This document shows, piece by piece, positions 9,353-42,986 of a DNA stretch of 64,000 nt. Every line of letters starts with the position of its first letter. The stretch's first letter is position 1. The stretch lies in the NCBI RefSeq assembly GCF_001307195.1, contig NZ_CP012808.1, positions 1,922,001-1,986,000 on the forward strand. Reading direction: 5' to 3'. Under the pieces are notes generated by a model. It was not told the origin of the DNA, did no database searches, and worked only from the letters and a program-made list of their open reading frames with translations. The DNA comes from Acinetobacter equi (GTDB taxonomy: Bacteria; Pseudomonadota; Gammaproteobacteria; Pseudomonadales; Moraxellaceae). The position numbers and the translations under genes were made by a program.

Positions 9353-9667
9353 ATGGACCAAGCAGATTTCTTTAAATGCCTATCTGACTCGACTCGTTTG
9401 GATATATTAAAAATAATTTTAGAAAGACATAACGTATGTGTTTGTGAAATCACAGAGATATTACAGCTGAGCCAACCTAAGATTTCTCGCCACTTAGCTT
9501 TACTTCGTAACCTTTTAATTGTGCTAGATGAACGTAAAGGGCAATGGGTATATTACCGTTTAAATCCCGATTTACCAGAGTGGGCAACTTCTATACTTAA
9601 TGTTTTAAAGGATGAGGTACTGAGCACACCTTCGAACAACTTATCTATCTCTATACAGTGCGAGTAG
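9353..9667 (+). CDS. arsR: Arsenite-responsive ArsR repressor
   Basis: A 104-residue winged-helix repressor of the ArsR/SmtB family. The arsenite-sensing Cys pair is in HNVCVCEI (about residues 30-34), at the DNA-recognition region, followed by [16 protein letters not shown]. It should release the ars promoters when As(III) or Sb(III) binds. First gene of arsR-acr3-arsH, five bases from the efflux gene. Confidence 0.9.
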
Positions 9668-9671
9668 TCGA

Positions 9672-10712
9672 ATGTCTGTATCAAAGCTTTCATTTTTAGA
9701 TCGAAACTTAACCCTATGGATTTTTATTGCCATGGCATTAGGGGTAAGCATCGGTATATTTTTTCCTAAAGTATCGATCGCTTTAGATCAACTGAGTATA
9801 AATTCAGTAAATATTCCTATTGCGATAGGACTTATTTTGATGATGTATCCACCACTAGCTAAAGTAGACTATGCAACTTTGCCAAAAGTATTTGAGGATA
9901 AGCGTACTTTAACATTATCTCTTGTCCAAAACTGGCTTATAGCACCAAGTTTGATGTTTATTCTAGCCATCGTTTTTTTACATTCCTATCCGGAATATAT
10001 GACAGGGTTAATTTTAATTGGATTAGCCCGATGTATTGCTATGGTTTTGGTGTGGAATGAACTAGCTTGTGGTGATAATCAATATGTAGCAGCATTGGTT
10101 GCTTTTAATAGTGTTTTTCAAATTTTATTTTTTAGTAGTTATGCTTGGCTTTTTTTGACTTATTTGCCACCTTATTTTGGTGTAGAAGCACAAGTTATTG
10201 ATGTGGGATTTTGGACTATTACCCATGCTGTGCTTATTTATCTAGGAATTCCATTTTTACTTGGTTTTTTGACTCGATTAATTTTAGTTAGACAAAAAGG
10301 TTTAGATTGGTACCAAACTAACTTTATTCCTAAAGTTAGTCCGATTAGCCTAGTTGCTCTTTTATTTACTATTGTTGCAATGTTTAGCCTCAAAGGTGGT
10401 GAAGTAGTTAGCCTTCCTTTGGATGTAATTAGAATCGCTATACCTTTAATAATCTATTTTGTTGTGATGTTCTTTATTAGCTTCTTTATGAGTAAGTGGA
10501 TAGGAAATGATTATCCTAAGACAACAGCTATTTCTTTTACTGCAGCTGGAAATAATTTTGAACTAGCGCTTGCTGTTGCTATTGCTACTTTTGGATTGGC
10601 TTCACCAGTAGCATTTACTACGATTATTGGTCCTCTTGTTGAAGTACCTGTACTTATTGCTTTAGTGACAGTGTCATTATGGCTTAGAAAAAAAATTTAT
10701 AAAGAGGAGTGA
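9672..10712 (+). CDS. acr3: ACR3-family arsenite efflux permease
   Basis: A 346-residue inner-membrane protein with about ten membrane helices. The family's essential Cys is in [19 protein letters not shown] (about residues 112-130), and the second signature [20 protein letters not shown] is near residue 290. ACR3 proteins export As(III) using the proton-motive force. They differ from ArsB, which this is not. It lies between arsR and arsH with almost no gap, so it is co-transcribed with them. Confidence 0.92.
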
Positions 10713-35195: not shown

Positions 35196-37814
35196 ATGCT
35201 GAATAATATTTTAATGGTCTTAGACAAGATTGGTTTAGGTACACAAAAACGTGCCTTGCATATTCAATTTTCTAATGCAGCACTGAATCAACAAGTCATG
35301 CTACAACGCATTGATGGAGAACATGCCATTAATGAAGGCTTGTCTGCGGAACTGATTTGCCTATCGACCAATCCCTATCTCGCGTTAAAAGAATTTATTG
35401 GCAGCCAAGTAGCAGTGGATCAGGTGACTGATGCCAGTCAATTGATTAGAACAACGGGGATCATTACAGAAGCCTCATTGGGTCAATCAGACGGTGCTTT
35501 AACGCTGTATCGTCTAAAAATGCAAGATGCAACAGCACTGTGGCATCAACGACGTAACAGTCGTGTGTTTATGAATAAAACCGTGGTTGAAATTGTCGAA
35601 ACCATTTTTAAAGAATGGCAGAGTAAAAGCCCACTTTTTGCAGCCAGTCTACAATTCGATTTAATTGGTCTGAAGAATACTTATGACACTCGACCATTTT
35701 CCATGCAATCAAATGAGAGCGATGCGGCATATGTAAAACGGTTGTTAGCTTCTGAAAACATTACATATTTTATTGATGAAGCCAACTATATTGTTGCTAG
35801 TCAAAACCAAGGGATCGAAGCACAAAAACTTCGCTTGATTGATGACAATGCCCAATTCCAAGCCCTAAGTCGTCGTAGTATTCGTTATCATCGTTCCAAT
35901 GCCACTGAAAAAACCGACAGTATTACCAGTCTGATTGCTCAACGTCAGCTACAACCAACGGCAATTCATGTGCAACGTTGGCAAGCGGATGCACTTTCAC
36001 AAGAAGAAGGTGCTGGCTCAGTTTTAAGTTCACACAAACATAGTCAAGTCCAAGACAATGCGAGTTTAAGCCTCGAACAGGCATGGACCATTTCACCGGC
36101 ATGGATCAGTGATTTAAAAGGTGAAGACCAAGCCACCAAATCTAGCAATGCACAAATTGAAAAACTCAATACCCAGTTAAACCAATACCAAGCCTTACAA
36201 TCGAAATATTTCACAGCACACAGCAGTGTTCGTGATACTCAAGTCGGTTATTGGTTCCAACTGAATGACCATCCAGAATTAGATCAAAACCACAGTGGCA
36301 GTGATAAAGAACTTTTAATTCTCCGCAAACGTTTTTATAACCAAAACAATTTACCGAAAGATTTAAAAGACCAACTCGAACGTCTACTCCAACAAAGCCA
36401 TTGGTCAAGCAGTAAAGACAGTGATCAAGAACGCCAAGCCAATGAACTGACTTTAATCCGTCGTAGTATTGCGGTTGTTCCTGAATATGATCCTCTACAG
36501 CATAGACCAACCGCCCATGTGCAACGTGCCAAAGTGGTGGGTGTGGAAGGTGAAGAAATTCATGTCGATGAATGGGGACGCATTAAAGTCCGTTTCTTAT
36601 TTACCCGTGCAGAAGATCATAGCCATGATAGTGGTGCAGGAGCAAATGACAATGACACCGACTCTGCTTGGGTGGATGTCTTAACCCCTTGGGCAGGTGA
36701 AGGCTATGGTGCACGCTTCCTGCCACGTGTGGGTGAGATTGTGGTGATTGATTTCTTTGATGGTGATGTGGATCGCCCTTTTGTGGCAGGACGTATTCAT
36801 GAAGCACAGAGAAGTCCGACCAAGTTTGATGTTAAAGGACAATTGCCTGATACCAAGAAACTCAGTGGTATTCGCTCTAAAGAAGTCGGTGGAGAAGGCT
36901 TTAACCAACTACGCTTTGATGATACGACAGGACAAATTAGTGCCCAACTGCATAGTAGTCATGGGGCTACCCAGCTTAACCTTGGAAATCTCAGTCATCC
37001 GAAAGAACAAGCGGAGAGTGATGGACGAGGAGAAGGTTTTGAGCTGAGAACGGATCAGTGGGGAGCGTTACGTGCTGGACAAGGCTTGTTGATTTCAACA
37101 CGTGGACAAAATTTAGCTGAAAAATGCATATTAAATTTTAGCCAAGTGATTAAAGATCTTACAAAGAGCCTTGAAGCATTGCAGACAATTTCAGAGAGTG
37201 CTAAATATCATCATGCAGAAGGAATGAAAGCAATAGAAGATATTGAGCAATGGCTGGATAATTTTAATCAAGATGAAAAAAATAAAAAATCTCCAATAAG
37301 TAAATATGGTCAACCATTTATATTTTTAGAATCAGTAGATCATATCGGAGTTTCATCTCAGAAAAGTATTATTATGCAGGCAAAAAACAATATTAGCCTT
37401 AATAGTATAAAAAATACTGAAATTTGCGCAAATGAAGAAGTTAATATTTCTGCGGCTGAAAAAATTAGCATTTTTGCGCATAAATTAGGTATGAAACTAA
37501 TTTCAGTTATGGAAAAAATTGAAATTCAATCTCAAGCAAATAATATTGAAATTTCAGCAGATAAGTTGGTAAATATAAGCTCAGTGAGTTCAGATATTAA
37601 TATACAGGCCAAAGGAAATATTACTATACAAACGGGTAATTCATTAATCAAGCTCACACCTTCAAATATTACTTTAGAAACGAGCGGAAAAATTGAATAT
37701 AAAGCTGGACAGCATGTATTTATGAATGGGAATCCAGTTCAGAAAGGATTACCTGTATTTTCAACAAAAGACTTAGAACTGGATAATAACGGTAATTTTT
37801 GGTTTTCAGGATAA
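35196..37814 (+). CDS. vgrG: Type VI secretion spike protein VgrG
   Basis: 872 residues. The N-terminal two thirds are the gp27/gp5-like VgrG core (LISTNPYLALKEFIG, HVQRAKVVGVEGEEIHVDEW, YGARFLPRVGEIVVIDFFDG). A DUF2345-like segment starts near GFNQLRFDDTTGQIS. From about residue 640 the sequence becomes AT-rich and Asn/Ile/Lys-rich: a long helix region, then beta-helix repeats ending NNGNFWFSG. The tail probably docks the effector encoded four bases downstream. The composition break suggests module exchange. Confidence 0.9.
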   Translation: MLNNILMVLDKIGLGTQKRALHIQFSNAALNQQVMLQRIDGEHAINEGLSAELICLSTNPYLALKEFIGSQVAVDQVTDASQLIRTTGIITEASLGQSDGALTLYRLKMQDATALWHQRRNSRVFMNKTVVEIVETIFKEWQSKSPLFAASLQFDLIGLKNTYDTRPFSMQSNESDAAYVKRLLASENITYFIDEANYIVASQNQGIEAQKLRLIDDNAQFQALSRRSIRYHRSNATEKTDSITSLIAQRQLQPTAIHVQRWQADALSQEEGAGSVLSSHKHSQVQDNASLSLEQAWTISPAWISDLKGEDQATKSSNAQIEKLNTQLNQYQALQSKYFTAHSSVRDTQVGYWFQLNDHPELDQNHSGSDKELLILRKRFYNQNNLPKDLKDQLERLLQQSHWSSSKDSDQERQANELTLIRRSIAVVPEYDPLQHRPTAHVQRAKVVGVEGEEIHVDEWGRIKVRFLFTRAEDHSHDSGAGANDNDTDSAWVDVLTPWAGEGYGARFLPRVGEIVVIDFFDGDVDRPFVAGRIHEAQRSPTKFDVKGQLPDTKKLSGIRSKEVGGEGFNQLRFDDTTGQISAQLHSSHGATQLNLGNLSHPKEQAESDGRGEGFELRTDQWGALRAGQGLLISTRGQNLAEKCILNFSQVIKDLTKSLEALQTISESAKYHHAEGMKAIEDIEQWLDNFNQDEKNKKSPISKYGQPFIFLESVDHIGVSSQKSIIMQAKNNISLNSIKNTEICANEEVNISAAEKISIFAHKLGMKLISVMEKIEIQSQANNIEISADKLVNISSVSSDINIQAKGNITIQTGNSLIKLTPSNITLETSGKIEYKAGQHVFMNGNPVQKGLPVFSTKDLELDNNGNFWFSG

Positions 37815-37817
37815 AAA

Positions 37818-40142
37818 ATGAAGTTTATATACCCACCTATAAAAAATTTAAACCCATCACCAAATACAAAAAGTTTAACTTTTGATAATCTTTTAACAAA
37901 TTCTAATTATTCTAGTGATCTAGGATCTTTTATTATAGGAAAAAATAAAGTATTCCATGGGGGGATTAATTTAGTTATACCAAATGAGCATGGATTACAA
38001 GCAGTAGCAGATGGACATATTATTGCATATAGAGTATCAAAAGAATGTCAAAGCATTGAACATGTAGATAAGAAGCAAAATACAAAATTAGAATTTTCTA
38101 ATAACTTTATTTTAGTTGAACATGATTTTGATCAATTTCAATATATAAAATGTTTAGATGACAGTTTGATAGCAAACCCATATGCAGGTTATAAATTTTA
38201 TACACTTTATATGCACATCATGCCTCTAGAAGAATGTATTAATCAGAAAATATTACCTGATTGGTTGGTTTTAGATAAAAAAAGTAATCCCGCGCTTATA
38301 CGCGGTGAAAAGTTAAAACCAAAAGTCTTAAGTTTTACAAAAGGATTTACAGTAGCAAGGACTGAACTAAGTGATAAGATCATTAAAATATCTGAAAAAG
38401 ATATAGTAAATATTAATGGTGAAAATTATTTGAATAAAATGCTTGATATGTATGATACATCGGACACACCAGTTATAGTGTTAGATAAGTTTTTTTCAAC
38501 GAATGATGTTGTTGTACTGGATGATCAGACAAAAATTTCCGTTAAAACGGGAGAGTTATTAGGCTATGCTGGAAAAAGTCAAGCGAGTAGTATTGATCAA
38601 AGTCAAGTAAATTTTATGCATTTTGAAATATGGTTAGACAGTATAGATTTTTTAACAAACAATATAATTAATCAATATGCAAGCTATATTAGTAATAATC
38701 TGAATTCTACTATGCCAAGAAATATAGTATTTAATAATTTAGATATAAGGTCACTAGGATATAGCTATATAAAAAGTAATAATAGGTATCTAACATTTGA
38801 ATCGCTTTGCTTTGTTGAGGAACCTACTACTACTGACATTTGCGCTAGAATAAAAGGGAGTTTAGATGCTCAAAAAGGTTCAATAAATCAGTTTTTAACC
38901 AGTGTATTAAATAATCAAAAGGAGACTTTGTATACAGATGCAGATTGGTTAACTAATCCTGCCAATAAATGGAAAATATATAGGCAATCTGATTTTTTTA
39001 ATATAGATGGTTCTATAAAAGAAAGTGATTTTAAAAATAAATATTCAAATTTTAAAGATTGGAAAAAGTTACAAGATAGGGCAATTATTAAATTAGAATA
39101 TTCTGAATGGGATAAAAAGTATTTTGATCAAAAATATAATTTTTTATTAACAAAAAAGAGCAAGTTTTTTTCAAAAATTGATGAGAATACATTTCAAACT
39201 TTAAAAAAATATCAAGAGTCCGTTAGTTTTTTAGATAAAACAGCAGGTTCTGGAATAGTACCAGAAATACATAGCTTATATGCTGTAAATCCTGTTGAGT
39301 TTTTGGTGCAAATGAAAAGATGTATGTTTCCGGGACCTCCCACAGCAAATACACATCTAGTCAAAAGGTTAATACAGTATGCTTTGGACGAAAATGTTTA
39401 TTTAGTCAAAAAATTATTAAAAAAGCTGGATAAATGGATTGCTGGTGGAAAAGATCGTGATTTAGATGGAAAATTCACAATATGGTTTGGATATAGGCGA
39501 GGTGTTGTTACAACAACGGCAGCAACTTCAATTGTTTATGAAAATGGGATAATACCACCAAATGTCACAGATTTTAAAATTGCTCAAAAAGTTGTGCGTG
39601 AATATTACAAGCATGCTTTAGAAGTTTTAGAGAATTTAAATTGTGAAAGATTGTGCTTTGCATGGGGGCAAGAAACAGGGGCTTTTGTATATCCATTTGA
39701 TTTAAATAAAAATATTCATTTAGGGCTTCAAATTTTTTATCTTACATCTGTAAATGTTACTAATCAAGTTAATATGCATGAAGACTTTAATATACCTACC
39801 TTTAGACGAGATCTTAATGGTGAAGTTGGATTTGTAAATTTATTTTTACATGAGGTTTTACATTTTGTGATAAAAAATAGTGATGTCACAGATCAATCAT
39901 TGCTATCTAGTATGCTTGAATATGAAGATGATTCTGATTATAAGTATTTAAATGATATTCATGTTGAATATTATAATATGTATAATACTTTTGTTCGTTT
40001 TTCAGCTTATGGCATAAGTGAGTGTTTGCAATTAGCTAAAGATATACCTTCTGCAACTTTATGTAATTCTGATAGTTATGCTGAGTTTTTTGCAGATGTA
40101 ATGGAACTAATTAGACCTACTATGCAATATAGAGGTATTTAA
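37818..40142 (+). CDS. Candidate T6SS effector with M23-like and HExxH metalloprotease-like domains
   Basis: A 774-residue protein directly after vgrG. Residues about 35-280 follow the M23 (LytM) peptidase plan: VFHGGINL (47-51), LYMHI, TGELLGYAG, NFMHFEIW (268). The second zinc ligand Asp is Asn51, and the first His of the HxH is Phe266, so this domain looks inactive, perhaps a peptidoglycan-binding module. The C-terminus has HEVLH (678-682), then SAYGISECLQLAKDIPSAT and NSDSYAEFFADV, similar to Asp-zincin (M35-type) metalloproteases. No signal peptide, as expected for T6SS cargo. The likely target is in the periplasm, because the neighbouring immunity-like proteins are exported. Confidence 0.7.
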   Translation: MKFIYPPIKNLNPSPNTKSLTFDNLLTNSNYSSDLGSFIIGKNKVFHGGINLVIPNEHGLQAVADGHIIAYRVSKECQSIEHVDKKQNTKLEFSNNFILVEHDFDQFQYIKCLDDSLIANPYAGYKFYTLYMHIMPLEECINQKILPDWLVLDKKSNPALIRGEKLKPKVLSFTKGFTVARTELSDKIIKISEKDIVNINGENYLNKMLDMYDTSDTPVIVLDKFFSTNDVVVLDDQTKISVKTGELLGYAGKSQASSIDQSQVNFMHFEIWLDSIDFLTNNIINQYASYISNNLNSTMPRNIVFNNLDIRSLGYSYIKSNNRYLTFESLCFVEEPTTTDICARIKGSLDAQKGSINQFLTSVLNNQKETLYTDADWLTNPANKWKIYRQSDFFNIDGSIKESDFKNKYSNFKDWKKLQDRAIIKLEYSEWDKKYFDQKYNFLLTKKSKFFSKIDENTFQTLKKYQESVSFLDKTAGSGIVPEIHSLYAVNPVEFLVQMKRCMFPGPPTANTHLVKRLIQYALDENVYLVKKLLKKLDKWIAGGKDRDLDGKFTIWFGYRRGVVTTTAATSIVYENGIIPPNVTDFKIAQKVVREYYKHALEVLENLNCERLCFAWGQETGAFVYPFDLNKNIHLGLQIFYLTSVNVTNQVNMHEDFNIPTFRRDLNGEVGFVNLFLHEVLHFVIKNSDVTDQSLLSSMLEYEDDSDYKYLNDIHVEYYNMYNTFVRFSAYGISECLQLAKDIPSATLCNSDSYAEFFADVMELIRPTMQYRGI

Positions 40143-40144
40143 TA

Positions 40145-40852
40145 TTGAAATATCTTTTATTAATTCTAATATGGAGTCTTATGATGATTGAATCATATGC
40201 AAATGAATATATTTATTCTAAGGATAAACAGTTTTTACCAGAAAAAATTGAAATAAGTGATCAAAAGTTTCAAAATGATATTTTTTCATATTTTAATAAA
40301 AATAATATTTTAAATGTAAATGATAGTTATCATAATTTTAAACCAGTAATAGCCTCTAAAATTTCTGTTAATCAAATAGATCCATTTAATTTAAAAGTAA
40401 ATGTAACTTTAATAAACAATAATAGAGATTGGTATATACCTAGATTTGAAGAAAAATCAATTTATAGTGAGAAAAAAATAATTATAATTGAAAAAAATGA
40501 TAAATTTAGATTAATTTACCCAGAATGGTGGCCAAGAAGAGAGAGAAGTAAAAACTCTCCGATAGTATATATACTAAAGAAAGATAATATTAGTTTACTG
40601 GCCAAATTTAATAAAGGTGATACTTATAAAATAGAATATATAATAAAGATTCCTACTATTGATGAGTCACAGTCTGAATTTAGTATACACTTTCTAGATG
40701 GGAAAATCCCTATAGAAATTTTTAATCGATATAGAAAAATAAATAATAATATTCTGCCAAACTTGGTCACTAAATCAAATATTGTGCAGGTTATTTGCAA
40801 AAGATTAAGTGATCATAAAGAAGATGGTTATACTTGTGAATTTAGGGAATAA
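40145..40852 (+). CDS. Periplasmic immunity-like protein, intact copy 1
   Basis: 235 residues from a TTG preceded by AGAGGT. It has a signal peptide (KYLLLILIWSLMMIESYA) and a mature periplasmic domain with NNNRDWYIPRFEEKS, IYPEWWPRR and a C-terminal CKRLSDHKEDGYTCEF Cys pair. Three bases after the effector and followed by two degraded relatives, it is the expected cognate immunity protein. The family is not recognised; inhibition of the effector is inferred from position. Confidence 0.65.
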   Translation: MKYLLLILIWSLMMIESYANEYIYSKDKQFLPEKIEISDQKFQNDIFSYFNKNNILNVNDSYHNFKPVIASKISVNQIDPFNLKVNVTLINNNRDWYIPRFEEKSIYSEKKIIIIEKNDKFRLIYPEWWPRRERSKNSPIVYILKKDNISLLAKFNKGDTYKIEYIIKIPTIDESQSEFSIHFLDGKIPIEIFNRYRKINNNILPNLVTKSNIVQVICKRLSDHKEDGYTCEFRE

Positions 40853-40858
40853 TAAAAT

Positions 40859-41568
40859 TTGAAAAATATTATTTTAATTATATTTCTAAGTTTATTTAGC
40901 TATAATGTTGTTGCAAAAAAATATATATATTCTAGTACAATTCAAGTTGTTCCTAATAAAATTGAATTAAATGACGAAAATTTTCAAAATGATATTTTTT
41001 CATATTTTAATCAAAATAATATTTTAAATGTAAGTGATGATTATTATAATTTTAAATCAGTATTAGTCTCTAAGATTTCTGTTAATCAAATAGATCCATC
41101 TAATTTAAAAGTAAATGTAACTTTAATAAATAATAATAGAGATTGGTATATACCTAGATTTGAAGAAAAGTCTGTTTATAGTGAAAAAAAATCTATTTAA
41201 TAAGTGATAAGAAGGAAATTATGAATGTATATCCAGAGTGGTGGCCTCGAAGAAAGAATGGAGCTAATTCACCGAGTACATATATTCTTCGACCTGAGCA
41301 TGTAGGATTATTTGCCAAATTAAAGAAAGGAGACAGTTATAATCTAGAATATATAATAGAAATTCCAAATAGCAATGAGAATTACTTTTATTTTAATCTA
41401 TTTTATCAAGATTATTCTATGCCTTATGTTGAAGTCCATAAAAAATATCGAAAATTAAATGAAAGTTTTTTTCCATTATTAATAACGAAATCAAATATAA
41501 TAAAAGTTAGTTGCAGAAGAATAAGTGATTATAAAGAAGATGGTTATACTTGTGAATTTAGGGAATAG
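40859..41568 (+). pseudogene. Immunity-like protein copy 2, frameshifted
   Basis: The 5' part (113 residues from TTG) and the 3' part (from about 41188; ATG at 41221) together match copy 1 along its length: same YFNQNNILNVSDDYYNFK, NNNRDWYIPRFEEKSVYS and VYPEWWPRR blocks. They are split by loss of one A in the A8 tract at about 41183-41190; nine As would give EKKIYLISDKKEI. Either slippage (possibly reversible), decay, or sequencing error. Confidence 0.7.
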
Positions 41569-41572
41569 AAAA

Positions 41573-41633
41573 ATGAAAAATATTATTTTAATTATATTTC
41601 TAAGTTTGTCTAGCTACACTATTGTTGCAAAAG
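41573..41633 (+). pseudogene. Immunity-like copy 3, 5' remnant
   Basis: Only the signal-peptide coding part remains (KNIILIIFLSLSSYTIVAK), nearly identical to copy 2. It is cut by the IS3-family element at 41634. Confidence 0.75.
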
Positions 41634-41675
41634 TGATGTGTGCTGAAATAACAGGACACTTCTACTTGGGAAATT

Positions 41676-42530
41676 CTAGGCAGCCATCCTGTAAAAGTCT
41701 TCTGCCATTTGATTTGGTGTCTTAAAGTCCAATCCTTTCTGAATTCTCTGCTGATTATAAAATAGCTCTATGTATTTTGTAATATCTGCTTTAGCTTCTT
41801 CCCTTGTTTTATAATTGCGATGATGAACCAATTCATTTTTTAATATTCTCCAGAAGCTCTCAATAGGAGCATTATCGAAGCAATCACCGCGTTTACTCAT
41901 TGATCCCTGAAATCCATATTTTTCAAGTATCTTTCGATATTCATGACTACAGTATTGGCTGCCCCTGTCAGAGTGAATAATCAAGTCTTGAGAGGGTTTA
42001 TGATTTCGAATCGCCATGCTCAGTGCATTGCAAACGAGCTGTGACGTCATCCGTTCACTCAAGCTATACCCAACTACTTGTTTGCTGCAAAGATCTTTTA
42101 AAGCCGCTAAATACAGCCATCCTTCAGCTGTCCACACGTATGTAATGTCACTTACCCATGCAATGTTTGGAGCAGTCACTGTAAAATTTTGCTCTAACAA
42201 ATTATTGTAAACCGTACGTTGATGGTCGCTATGAGTTGTTTTTTTGAAACGCCTATGCCGCTTACAATACAGCTGATTAAGTTTTTTAATACAACGAACT
42301 GCATACTCGCTAATTTCTATTCCTTGTGCCTGTAAGTACTTGGTTAAACGAATATAACCATAGCTTTCATTGGTTTCTTGGTGAGCAATTTTAACCAATA
42401 TTGTTTGATGATTTCTCTGAATAACCCGCTTACTTAAGCCATATTTTAACCATTCATAAAATCCAGAAACTGAAACGTGGAGTAACCGAGCCATCATAGT
42501 GACTGAGTATGCATGTTTTTGCTGTTTCAT
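41676..42530 (-). CDS. IS3-family transposase OrfB (DDE integrase core)
   Basis: A 284-residue rve integrase-core protein. The catalytic triad is visible: Asp in WVSDITYVW, Asp in IHSDRGSQYCS and Glu in APIESFWRILKNEL (35 residues later). It also has an HTH_21-type N-terminus (SVSGFYEWLK). Its frame is open upstream through the A7 slippery tract in orfA, so it is normally made as an OrfAB fusion by -1 frameshifting. It looks intact. Confidence 0.93.
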   Translation of the reverse strand: MKQQKHAYSVTMMARLLHVSVSGFYEWLKYGLSKRVIQRNHQTILVKIAHQETNESYGYIRLTKYLQAQGIEISEYAVRCIKKLNQLYCKRHRRFKKTTHSDHQRTVYNNLLEQNFTVTAPNIAWVSDITYVWTAEGWLYLAALKDLCSKQVVGYSLSERMTSQLVCNALSMAIRNHKPSQDLIIHSDRGSQYCSHEYRKILEKYGFQGSMSKRGDCFDNAPIESFWRILKNELVHHRNYKTREEAKADITKYIELFYNQQRIQKGLDFKTPNQMAEDFYRMAA

Positions 42531-42541
42531 ATGTGCGTACT

Positions 42542-42841
42542 TTACTGACTTTCTTTGGCAAAGTACGCTGCTGCTTTTTTTAGAAATTCTCTTTCCATTT
42601 CAGCGGTTTTAAGTTGCTGCTTCAGTTTTTTATTTTCCTCGAGAAGAGCAACGAGATCAGGTGAATATTGTTGTGTGCCTACTAATTTTCCAGCTTTTGC
42701 TTTGTTGTACCAATTTGAAAGGGTTTGCATTGAAATGCCAAGCAGTCGTGCTGTTTCTGAAACATTGCCATTGTTTGAATCAATAGCTTTGATTGCTTCA
42801 GCTTTGAATTCTGCTGTATAAATCTTTTGTTTTTTGCTCAT
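42542..42841 (-). CDS. IS3-family transposase OrfA
   Basis: A 99-residue protein with an HTH_8/HTH_28-type domain (YTAEFKAEAIKAIDSNNGNV, ARLLGISMQTLSNWYNKAK) and a C-terminal leucine-zipper-like helix (LLEENKKLKQQLKTAEMERE). CTAAAAAAAG at 42574-42583 (minus strand) is a probable -1 slippery site joining it to OrfB. Confidence 0.92.
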   Translation of the reverse strand: MSKKQKIYTAEFKAEAIKAIDSNNGNVSETARLLGISMQTLSNWYNKAKAGKLVGTQQYSPDLVALLEENKKLKQQLKTAEMEREFLKKAAAYFAKESQ

Positions 42842-42908
42842 GGTAAACTCCTGATAAGTATGTGTAGTTTACCAAGTTAAAGTCTCCGTTTTTTTCAGCA
42901 CACATCAA

Positions 42909-42986
42909 TCAAATGTTGTGCAGGTTATTTGCAAAAGATTAAGTGATCATAAAGAAGATGGTTATACTTGTGAATTTAGGGAATAA
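42909..42986 (+). pseudogene. Immunity-like copy 3, 3' remnant
   Basis: 26 codons reading SNVVQVICKRLSDHKEDGYT and ending EFRE, the C-terminus of copy 1 almost exactly. It lies just beyond the right end of the IS3 element and pairs with the 5' remnant at 41573. Confidence 0.75.

What the first reader, a model, noticed from the sequence alone, without database searches (positions are those of the whole stretch)
37818..40142. T6SS cargo combining a dead-looking M23 fold with a C-terminal HExxH domain
The N-terminal region keeps the M23 plan but has lost two catalytic positions (Asn51 for Asp, Phe266 for the first His of HxH). The C-terminus carries HEVLH and an NSDSYAEFF block resembling Asp-zincin (M35-like) proteases. 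A peptidoglycan-docking pseudo-peptidase joined to a protease would be an uncommon effector design. The exported immunity-like neighbour fits a periplasmic target. I recall that a metallopeptidase T6SS effector (Tpe1) has been reported in Acinetobacter baylyi; whether this is a relative needs checking.
Basis: partly seen in the sequence, partly recalled or inferred. Interest (0 to 1): 0.72.

Follow-up and report, generated by a model that had tools for sequence, protein, structure and literature searches.

The report
Spike-docked toxin with retired peptidase domain
A bacterium carries a weapon protein whose front part is a retired cell-wall enzyme that probably plugs onto the tip of the bacterium's molecular spear, and whose back part looks like a new protease-type poison for rival bacteria.

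Summary
In detail: 37818-40142 encodes an intact 774-aa protein, three bases after a VgrG, with an M23-like N-terminus (Asn51, Phe266), HEVLH (678-682) and NSDSYAEFF (750-758). The reading changes. The N-terminus is a divergent copy of WHIX, a T6SS loading domain described in 2025, and profile comparison shows that WHIX itself is built on the M23 fold (E 8.4e-12, insert left out). Loss of the first HxH histidine is family-wide (His in 1 of 84); Asn51 is found only here (His in 86 of 86 relatives compared). VgrGs next to WHIX genes end in -FSx(x) (45 of 52; 0 of 24 controls) and the window's VgrG ends NFWFSG, so spike docking is the best-supported role. The C-terminus is a candidate Asp-zincin (sub-threshold M35, E 0.014), but structure prediction failed there (pLDDT 32). 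It is not recognisably Tpe1/VgrG2b. A secreted-looking immunity candidate follows, then two decayed copies, one around an IS3 element; toxin tail (3 of 175 genomes of the genus) and immunity (3 of 173) occur in the same three. New variant of a known kind.

The parts
35196..37814 (+). VgrG spike protein, 872 aa; its last residues NFWFSG (37794-37811) are the proposed docking tail
   Evidence: Pfam Phage_GPD/T6SS_Vgr/DUF2345, TIGR03361 242.9 bits over a cut-off of 186.35; tail comparison
37818..40142 (+). Effector, 774 aa
   Evidence: single copy in its genome
37923..38267 (+). First half of the M23-derived WHIX-like domain (residues 36-150): FHGGIN at 46-51, LYMH at 130-133
   Evidence: alignments A1, A3, A5, hhalign to M23, model pLDDT 62-95 in blocks of ten
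38523..38684 (+). Second M23 piece of the domain (residues 236-289): GELLGYAG, NFMHFEIW
39075..39317 (+). Second conserved WHIX region (residues 420-500): YSEW at 428-431, NP at 491-492
39318..40142 (+). C-terminal toxin candidate (residues 501-774): HEVLH at 39849-39863, SDYKYLND at 39933-39956, NSDSYAEFF at 40065-40091
   Evidence: Pfam Aspzincin_M35 sub-threshold, E 0.014-0.03; shuffles; no confident fold
40145..40852 (+). Immunity candidate, 235 aa, signal-peptide-like N-terminus (by eye), C218 and C231 invariant in 4 homologues
40859..41568 (+). Second immunity copy, open frame broken into two ORFs
41573..41634 (+). 5' remnant of a third immunity copy, next to the IS3 element
   Evidence: reading
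42906..42986 (+). 3' remnant of the third immunity copy, on the other side of the IS3 element
   Evidence: 92% identity over 26 residues
41635..42905 (-). IS3-family insertion element (two transposase ORFs 41676-42530 and 42542-42841)
   Evidence: ends approximate, read by eye

Best explanation
This is a T6SS cargo effector. Its N-terminal two thirds are a divergent WHIX-like domain, an M23-peptidase fold converted into a loading module, which caps the -FSG carboxyl tail of the VgrG encoded three bases upstream. Its C-terminal third is a toxin, most likely a zinc metallopeptidase of Asp-zincin type, released in the prey periplasm; the secreted-looking 235-aa protein encoded next protects the producer. 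Shown here by sequence: homology to WHIX proteins, M23 ancestry of that domain, loss of a histidine invariant in the relatives compared, the VgrG tail motif and its link to WHIX, co-occurrence of toxin tail and immunity gene. Shown by others for relatives: the WHIX domain is sufficient for secretion and needs the VgrG tail. Inferred: docking in this protein, lack of enzyme activity of its N-domain, protease activity and periplasmic target of the C-domain, immunity function.
For: WHIX homology: tblastn with the single protein hits only the N-terminus (1-156) in 10 plasmid records, E 4e-7 to 6e-4; of the 7 fetched, 6 gave full proteins with other C-termini. An alignment scan confirmed 221 relatives and kept 80; one of the 80 is from V. 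coralliilyticus BAA-450, a strain in which WHIX was first seen (same protein not verified). M23 ancestry: hhalign E 8.4e-12, Foldseek. Docking: 45 of 52 WHIX-adjacent VgrGs end in FSx(x) against 0 of 24 other VgrGs; 26 of 31 distinct tails; 11 genus-level groups; window VgrG ends NFWFSG; A. jandaei VgrG4 ends V-S-F-S-G-R and its last 14 residues are needed. Toxin: HEVLH fits the zinc protease signature (recalled pattern; 7 of 20,000 shuffles), M35 E 0.014. Immunity: 3 of 173 genomes of the genus, the same three that hold the toxin C-terminus (3 of 175). T6SS sheath protein and 5 VgrG matches in the genome.
Against: The WHxxxH motif reads FHGGIN here, so docking cannot be taken for granted; 7 of 52 WHIX-adjacent VgrGs lack the tail. 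No search gave a significant zincin match, and AlphaFold2 failed on the C-terminus. In the decayed L004 copy several aspartates that could be the third metal ligand are not conserved. Foldseek support for M23 has no hit at E 0.001; in a PDB sequence search with the family profile the best hits were EF-hand proteins (E 0.025), LytM came at E 0.2. No named T6SS metallopeptidase was matched by sequence.
Confidence: 0.68

Rival explanations
1. The N-domain is still an enzyme (a peptidoglycan amidase, as reported for TseP-N) and the protein is bifunctional.
For: TseP-N was reported as a Zn-dependent amidase weakened by mutating H19, H23, H109, H339, H359 and E539 (PMC11893102 section 6); that spacing roughly fits WHIX positions 47, 51, 133, 250 and 268, so the family may be enzymatic. 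His47, His133, His268 and Glu270 are kept here.
Against: Position 51 is Asn here and His in 86 of 86 relatives; position 250 is Tyr (also in 37 of 86); the first HxH histidine is absent. Periplasmic WHIX of Awe1 alone was not toxic to E. coli. The TseP mapping is approximate: the exact spacing was found in 0 of 87 sequences.
Confidence: 0.12
2. The C-terminal domain is a toxin of another kind (for example a pore former or a new fold) and HEVLH is coincidental or structural.
For: No confident zincin match, no fold; other WHIX toxins are mostly peptidoglycan hydrolases.
Against: Chance of the motif pair is low; the M35 match, the only Pfam hit of the C-terminal pieces at E up to 10, falls on NSDSYAEFF; both low-confidence models put HEVLH inside a helix.
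Confidence: 0.27
3. One reading: a pseudo-peptidase that docks the effector on prey peptidoglycan.
For: WHIX toxins mostly act on peptidoglycan, and the WHIX authors leave open a second role after delivery. That M23 folds can bind without cutting is recalled.
Against: Direct evidence for a relative is for binding to VgrG; the partner VgrG carries the family's tail motif.
Confidence: 0.08
4. The effector is decaying: a broken WHIX motif, A+T-rich sequence and two damaged immunity copies mark a relic.
For: GC 27% in the WHIX part and 23% in the immunity genes against 34% in the window; remnants in two other genomes; damaged copies next door.
Against: 774 codons without a stop, first immunity copy intact, VgrG intact with its tail, many conserved positions kept.
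Confidence: 0.08

Closest known systems
WHIX effectors (Fridman et al. 2025, PMC12135965; sections 6, 11, 12 and passages read)
   Same: Homologous bipartite N-terminal domain, gene directly after VgrG, C-terminal toxin candidate, secreted-looking immunity candidate downstream, VgrG tail of the same type
   Different: FHGGIN instead of WHxxxH; toxin type not named in its Table 1 (no metalloprotease; 145 proteins are 'Others'); the word Acinetobacter does not occur in its main text; its datasets could not be read
TseP of Aeromonas dhakensis (Wang et al. 2025, PMC11893102; section 6 and passages read)
   Same: VgrG-linked, N-domain with an M23-like histidine pattern (superposed there on 3SLU; that 3SLU is an M23 peptidase is recalled), separate C-terminal toxin
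   Different: TseP-N reported active; here one of those positions is Asn and another Tyr; its C-terminus is a lysozyme. Equivalence of positions is inferred from approximate spacing; the TseP sequence was not fetched
M23/LytM peptidases, including the EnvC LytM domain
   Same: Fold and most motifs by profile and Foldseek
   Different: Asp metal ligand and one catalytic His missing; large insert between the halves; used for loading in a studied relative
VgrG2b C-terminal domain / Tpe1 (PMC6899460, passages read)
   Same: HExxH, small downstream immunity gene with envelope targeting, T6SS
   Different: No sequence match found; carried on VgrG or PAAR neighbours, not on a WHIX domain; DUF4157 not matched here
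Aspzincin_M35 (PF14521)
   Same: HExxH and an NxDSYxxFF-type block
   Different: 15-16 bits against a cut-off of 30; matched over 29 positions only

Membership tests
WHIX T6SS effectors | Homologous bipartite domain (two conserved regions) | tested here: met
WHIX T6SS effectors | WHxxxH motif | tested here: not met
   FHGGIN; first His kept, Trp is Phe (W in 83 of 86 others), second His is Asn (His in 86 of 86 others; 69 of 69 after dropping near-duplicates). Hence filed as a divergent relative, not a standard member
WHIX T6SS effectors | Linkage to a spike protein and a T6SS genome | tested here: met
   (of the core machinery only the sheath protein and VgrGs were sought)
WHIX T6SS effectors | Binding to the VgrG C-terminal tail | tested here: inconclusive
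   only the tail motif could be tested; binding needs an experiment
M23 peptidases | HxxxD metal ligands | tested here: not met
   H47, N51
M23 peptidases | HxH pair | tested here: not met
   F266-M-H268; lost in the family (His in 1 of 84)
M23 peptidases | M23 fold | tested here: met
   Foldseek alone is weak
Aspzincin M35 | HExxH | tested here: met
   678-682
Aspzincin M35 | Third ligand Asp | tested here: inconclusive
   seven Asp residues at 689-742, several not kept in the decayed L004 copy; that M35 uses an Asp is recalled
Aspzincin M35 | Profile match over the curated cut-off | tested here: not met
   15.2-16.3 bits against 30
Aspzincin M35 | Zincin fold | tested here: inconclusive
   pLDDT 32
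Tpe1/VgrG2b metallopeptidase effectors | Sequence similarity or DUF4157 | tested here: not met
   no match in Pfam, NCBIfam or PDB sequences at E up to 10 for the C-terminus; Tpe1 itself was not fetched or compared
Tpe1/VgrG2b metallopeptidase effectors | Toxic in the periplasm, neutralised by neighbour | not testable with these tools
   -

The most novel reading that the evidence does not exclude
WHIX is an M23 cell-wall peptidase whose substrate groove was re-used to grip a short carboxyl tail (-FSx) of VgrG and PAAR-like spikes, so that loading and the reported amidase activity share one pocket. The window protein is a natural separation of the two: it has lost an otherwise invariant metal-site histidine yet keeps a partner VgrG with the tail, and it has put a new metalloprotease toxin on the chassis.
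Probability: 0.35. Interest if true: 0.7.

Novelty: new variant of a known kind. Interest (0 to 1): 0.5.

Why it matters
Two 2025 papers describe what approximate spacing of conserved residues suggests is the same domain, one as a loading domain without toxicity, the other as a zinc amidase. Seeing that it is an M23 fold, that family-wide it lacks one M23 catalytic histidine, and that one member has also lost a metal-site histidine makes the question testable: is the metal site needed for docking or for killing? The -FSx tail offers a simple marker for finding the spike partner of such effectors. The C-terminal domain may be a new antibacterial protease family with an immunity partner of unknown fold.

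Tried and rejected
Considered and rejected: Tpe1 kinship (no shared family matched); peptidoglycan docking as the main role; a DUF4123-type adaptor (none among the five proteins of the locus scanned); phage or defence origin (PHROGs: only a weak metallo-endopeptidase match to the N-domain, E 0.052, and E 0.74 for the immunity protein; PADLOC: nothing).

Led nowhere: genome-contig scan with the single protein (8 pattern matches, 0 confirmed); a search of 299 genomes of the family (2 with a match, own and G046); C-terminus against plasmids (no match at E up to 10) and against 321 genomes of the class (besides its own copy 5 matches at E 0.014-0.098, not examined further); PDB sequence searches with the protein and the C-terminus (unrelated proteins, E 0.24 or worse); second structure job (pLDDT 32), so no fold search was made with it. 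An alignment with one row given whole by mistake was redone; a first MAFFT run timed out and was replaced by a faster setting.

Limits of the counts: the 80 named relatives were found through one peptide pattern at the YMH motif, so conservation at 125-133 is partly by construction; positions 46, 47 and 51 lie outside it. Of the 86 relatives, 17 were flagged as more than 85% identical to another and 2 are short; without the 17, position 51 is His in 69 of 69. A profile search of 321 genomes of the class gave two matches besides the window's own; both keep WHxxxH and have VgrGs ending FSG and FSL. The Citrobacter hit (L008) is split into short ORFs and was left out of the alignments; hits H5, H6 and H8 were not fetched. 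In the tail count 34 of 86 loci had no VgrG ORF ending from 3 kb upstream to 300 bases inside the called start in the held DNA and were not counted. Of 33 control loci, 24 gave a usable VgrG ORF (3 of the genome's other 4); two of these frames carry stops (L108, L131). Relatedness of species is not corrected for beyond counting distinct tails (26 of 31). Genus labels were typed from the record titles.

Full report
What is there. The ORF at 37818-40142 is intact, 774 aa, and begins three bases after the stop of a complete VgrG (35196-37814). It is the only copy in its 3.05-Mb genome, which also has a T6SS sheath protein and five VgrG matches. The host is taken as Acinetobacter because the IS3 element in the locus matches 277 plasmid records, all Acinetobacter, at up to 84% identity in the rows listed; the genome itself is unnamed. 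The island lies between genes that look like molybdate transport and molybdopterin genes (by eye).

The N-terminal domain. Alone, the protein scores M23 only below the cut-off. tblastn against plasmids found ten records, all matching within the first 156 residues. Seven were fetched; six hold full proteins with other C-termini, with a VgrG or a PAAR-like protein upstream, and one (Citrobacter) is broken into short ORFs. A scan with an alignment of six N-domains confirmed 221 relatives and kept 80, in Pseudomonas, Aeromonas, Vibrio, Photobacterium, Burkholderia and others; none of the 80 is titled Acinetobacter, and in a search of 173 genomes of the genus only the window's own had the domain. 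The literature names it: WHIX, a bipartite domain sufficient for T6SS secretion (PMC12135965; sections 6, 11, 12 and passages read).

WHIX is built on an M23 fold. A WHIX profile with the insert between its halves left out (85 rows) matches 20 M23 domains with probability 97.5% and E 8.4e-12 across nearly the whole M23 domain: WHGGIH pairs with HxGxD, LYMH with YAH, xHxE with HLHxE. With the insert kept, only the last hairpin aligns (E 4.3e-6). Single members rarely show it: 3 of 63 reach E 0.1 against Pfam M23, while about 25 match EF-hand families in the middle region, and in a PDB sequence search with the family profile EF-hand proteins came first (E 0.025) and LytM at E 0.2. The AlphaFold2 model is confident in this core, and 8 of its 10 best PDB matches are M23-fold chains (LytM five times, LECT2, EnvC LytM domain, ShyA), none at E 0.001 or better (that LECT2 has this fold is recalled). 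In the main text of the WHIX paper M23 is mentioned three times, only for N-terminal extensions; the TseP paper superposes its amidase domain on 3SLU and does not use the word M23. One search for WHIX in print found two papers, the second naming it only in passing. Supplements could not be read, so I do not claim that nobody has noticed.

What is lost, and where. Among 86 relatives the residue at 47 is His in 86, at 133 His in 86 (partly by the search pattern), at 268 His in 84 of 84 with a residue. The first HxH histidine (Phe266 here) is His in only 1 of 84: its loss is a family trait. The M23 aspartate position is His in 86 of 86, and Asn only here; position 46 is Trp in 83, Phe in 2, Leu in 1, and Phe here. 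Without 17 near-duplicates the count at 51 is 69 of 69. So the window protein has lost the second half of the motif that gave WHIX its name. TseP-N mutations that reduced amidase activity include H19, H23, H109, H339 and H359; their spacing roughly fits 47, 51, 133, 250 and 268, but the exact spacing occurs in 0 of 87 sequences here, the TseP sequence was not fetched, and the one WHIX protein of the A. dhakensis genome held differs by up to ten residues. If the mapping is right, this protein lacks two of the five (Asn51, Tyr250; Tyr250 is shared by 37 of 86).

Docking tail. Of 86 WHIX loci, 52 have a VgrG ORF just upstream in the held DNA; 45 of these end in FSx or FSxx at the carboxyl end, in 26 of 31 distinct tails and in 11 genus-level groups; 0 of 24 other VgrGs do (own genome and class, out of 33 control loci), Fisher 7e-14, or 8e-11 on distinct tails. 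The window's VgrG ends NFWFSG. The A. jandaei VgrG4 residues predicted to enter the WHIX cavity end in S-F-S-G-R, and removal of 14 residues abolished binding and export. Upstream of Vibrio and Photobacterium WHIX genes stand other carriers: two of them tested are Tox-PAAR-like, and 7 of 10 such tails, read, end in FSD, the other 3 in YSD; an eleventh, of no Pfam family, ends in FSG. The WHIX paper's main text does not print 'FSG'; one search for papers on VgrG C-terminal tails and loading gave 13, of which 8 were listed, with no further reading for this point.

The C-terminal domain. Residues 501-774 carry HEVLH and NSDSYAEFF. Pfam's only match there is Aspzincin_M35 at E 0.014-0.03, about half the required score, over the NSDSYAEFF block. 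HExxH turns up in 174, the PROSITE zinc-protease pattern (recalled) in 7, and HExxH followed by xDSY in 1 of 20,000 shuffles. Of 80 relatives with a C-terminal extension of 80 aa or more, 2 have an HExxH, both in one shared context unlike this one. AlphaFold2 failed here in both jobs. So a metallopeptidase is the best guess, not a result. PMC10673891 (passages) calls the VgrG2b toxin domain M35, so M35-type T6SS toxins have a precedent in print; no sequence match to it was found here.

Immunity and turnover. The next gene (40145-40852) begins with a signal-peptide-like stretch (by eye) and has two cysteines invariant in 4 homologues. A second copy is broken into two ORFs and a third is reduced to its ends around an IS3 element. 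In the genus, immunity homologues occur in 3 of 173 genomes and the toxin C-terminus in 3 of 175, the same three. In the two others only toxin tails remain, directly before intact immunity genes, in one of them twice in a row: effector turnover that leaves 3' ends and immunity genes behind, a pattern reported for V. cholerae (PMC5361080, search listing only).

Verdict. The most likely mechanism is: VgrG tail capped by an M23-derived, enzymatically silent WHIX-like domain; delivery to the prey periplasm; damage by a C-terminal protease-like toxin; self-protection by the neighbour. WHIX-like loading is well supported (about 0.9 for homology, 0.8 for docking), the protease less so (about 0.65).

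Noticed in passing
L005:8567-8707 and 9615-9709; L004:8375-8641: Decayed 3' ends of the same toxin gene lie directly before intact immunity homologues in two other genomes of the genus, twice in a row in one of them; in L004 they follow a truncated VgrG.
   Followed up: partly
window 40859-42986: Second immunity copy broken in frame; third copy reduced to its two ends around an IS3 element, with its middle missing.
   Followed up: partly
window 37794-37811; VgrGs upstream of WHIX genes: Carboxyl-terminal -FSx motif shared by most WHIX-linked VgrGs and by several PAAR-like carriers.
   Followed up: yes
window 37215-41568: G+C falls from 39% in vgrG (29% in its last 600 bases) to 27% in the effector's WHIX part and 23% in the immunity genes (window 34%): the island's variable end looks foreign or fast-evolving.
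   Followed up: no
G000:C1:349347-351035 (L108): One of the genome's five VgrG matches has an in-frame stop.
   Followed up: no
Literature: PMC12135965 and PMC11893102: What approximate spacing suggests is the same domain is reported as a non-toxic loading domain in one paper and as a zinc amidase in the other; the passages read here do not connect the two.
   Followed up: partly
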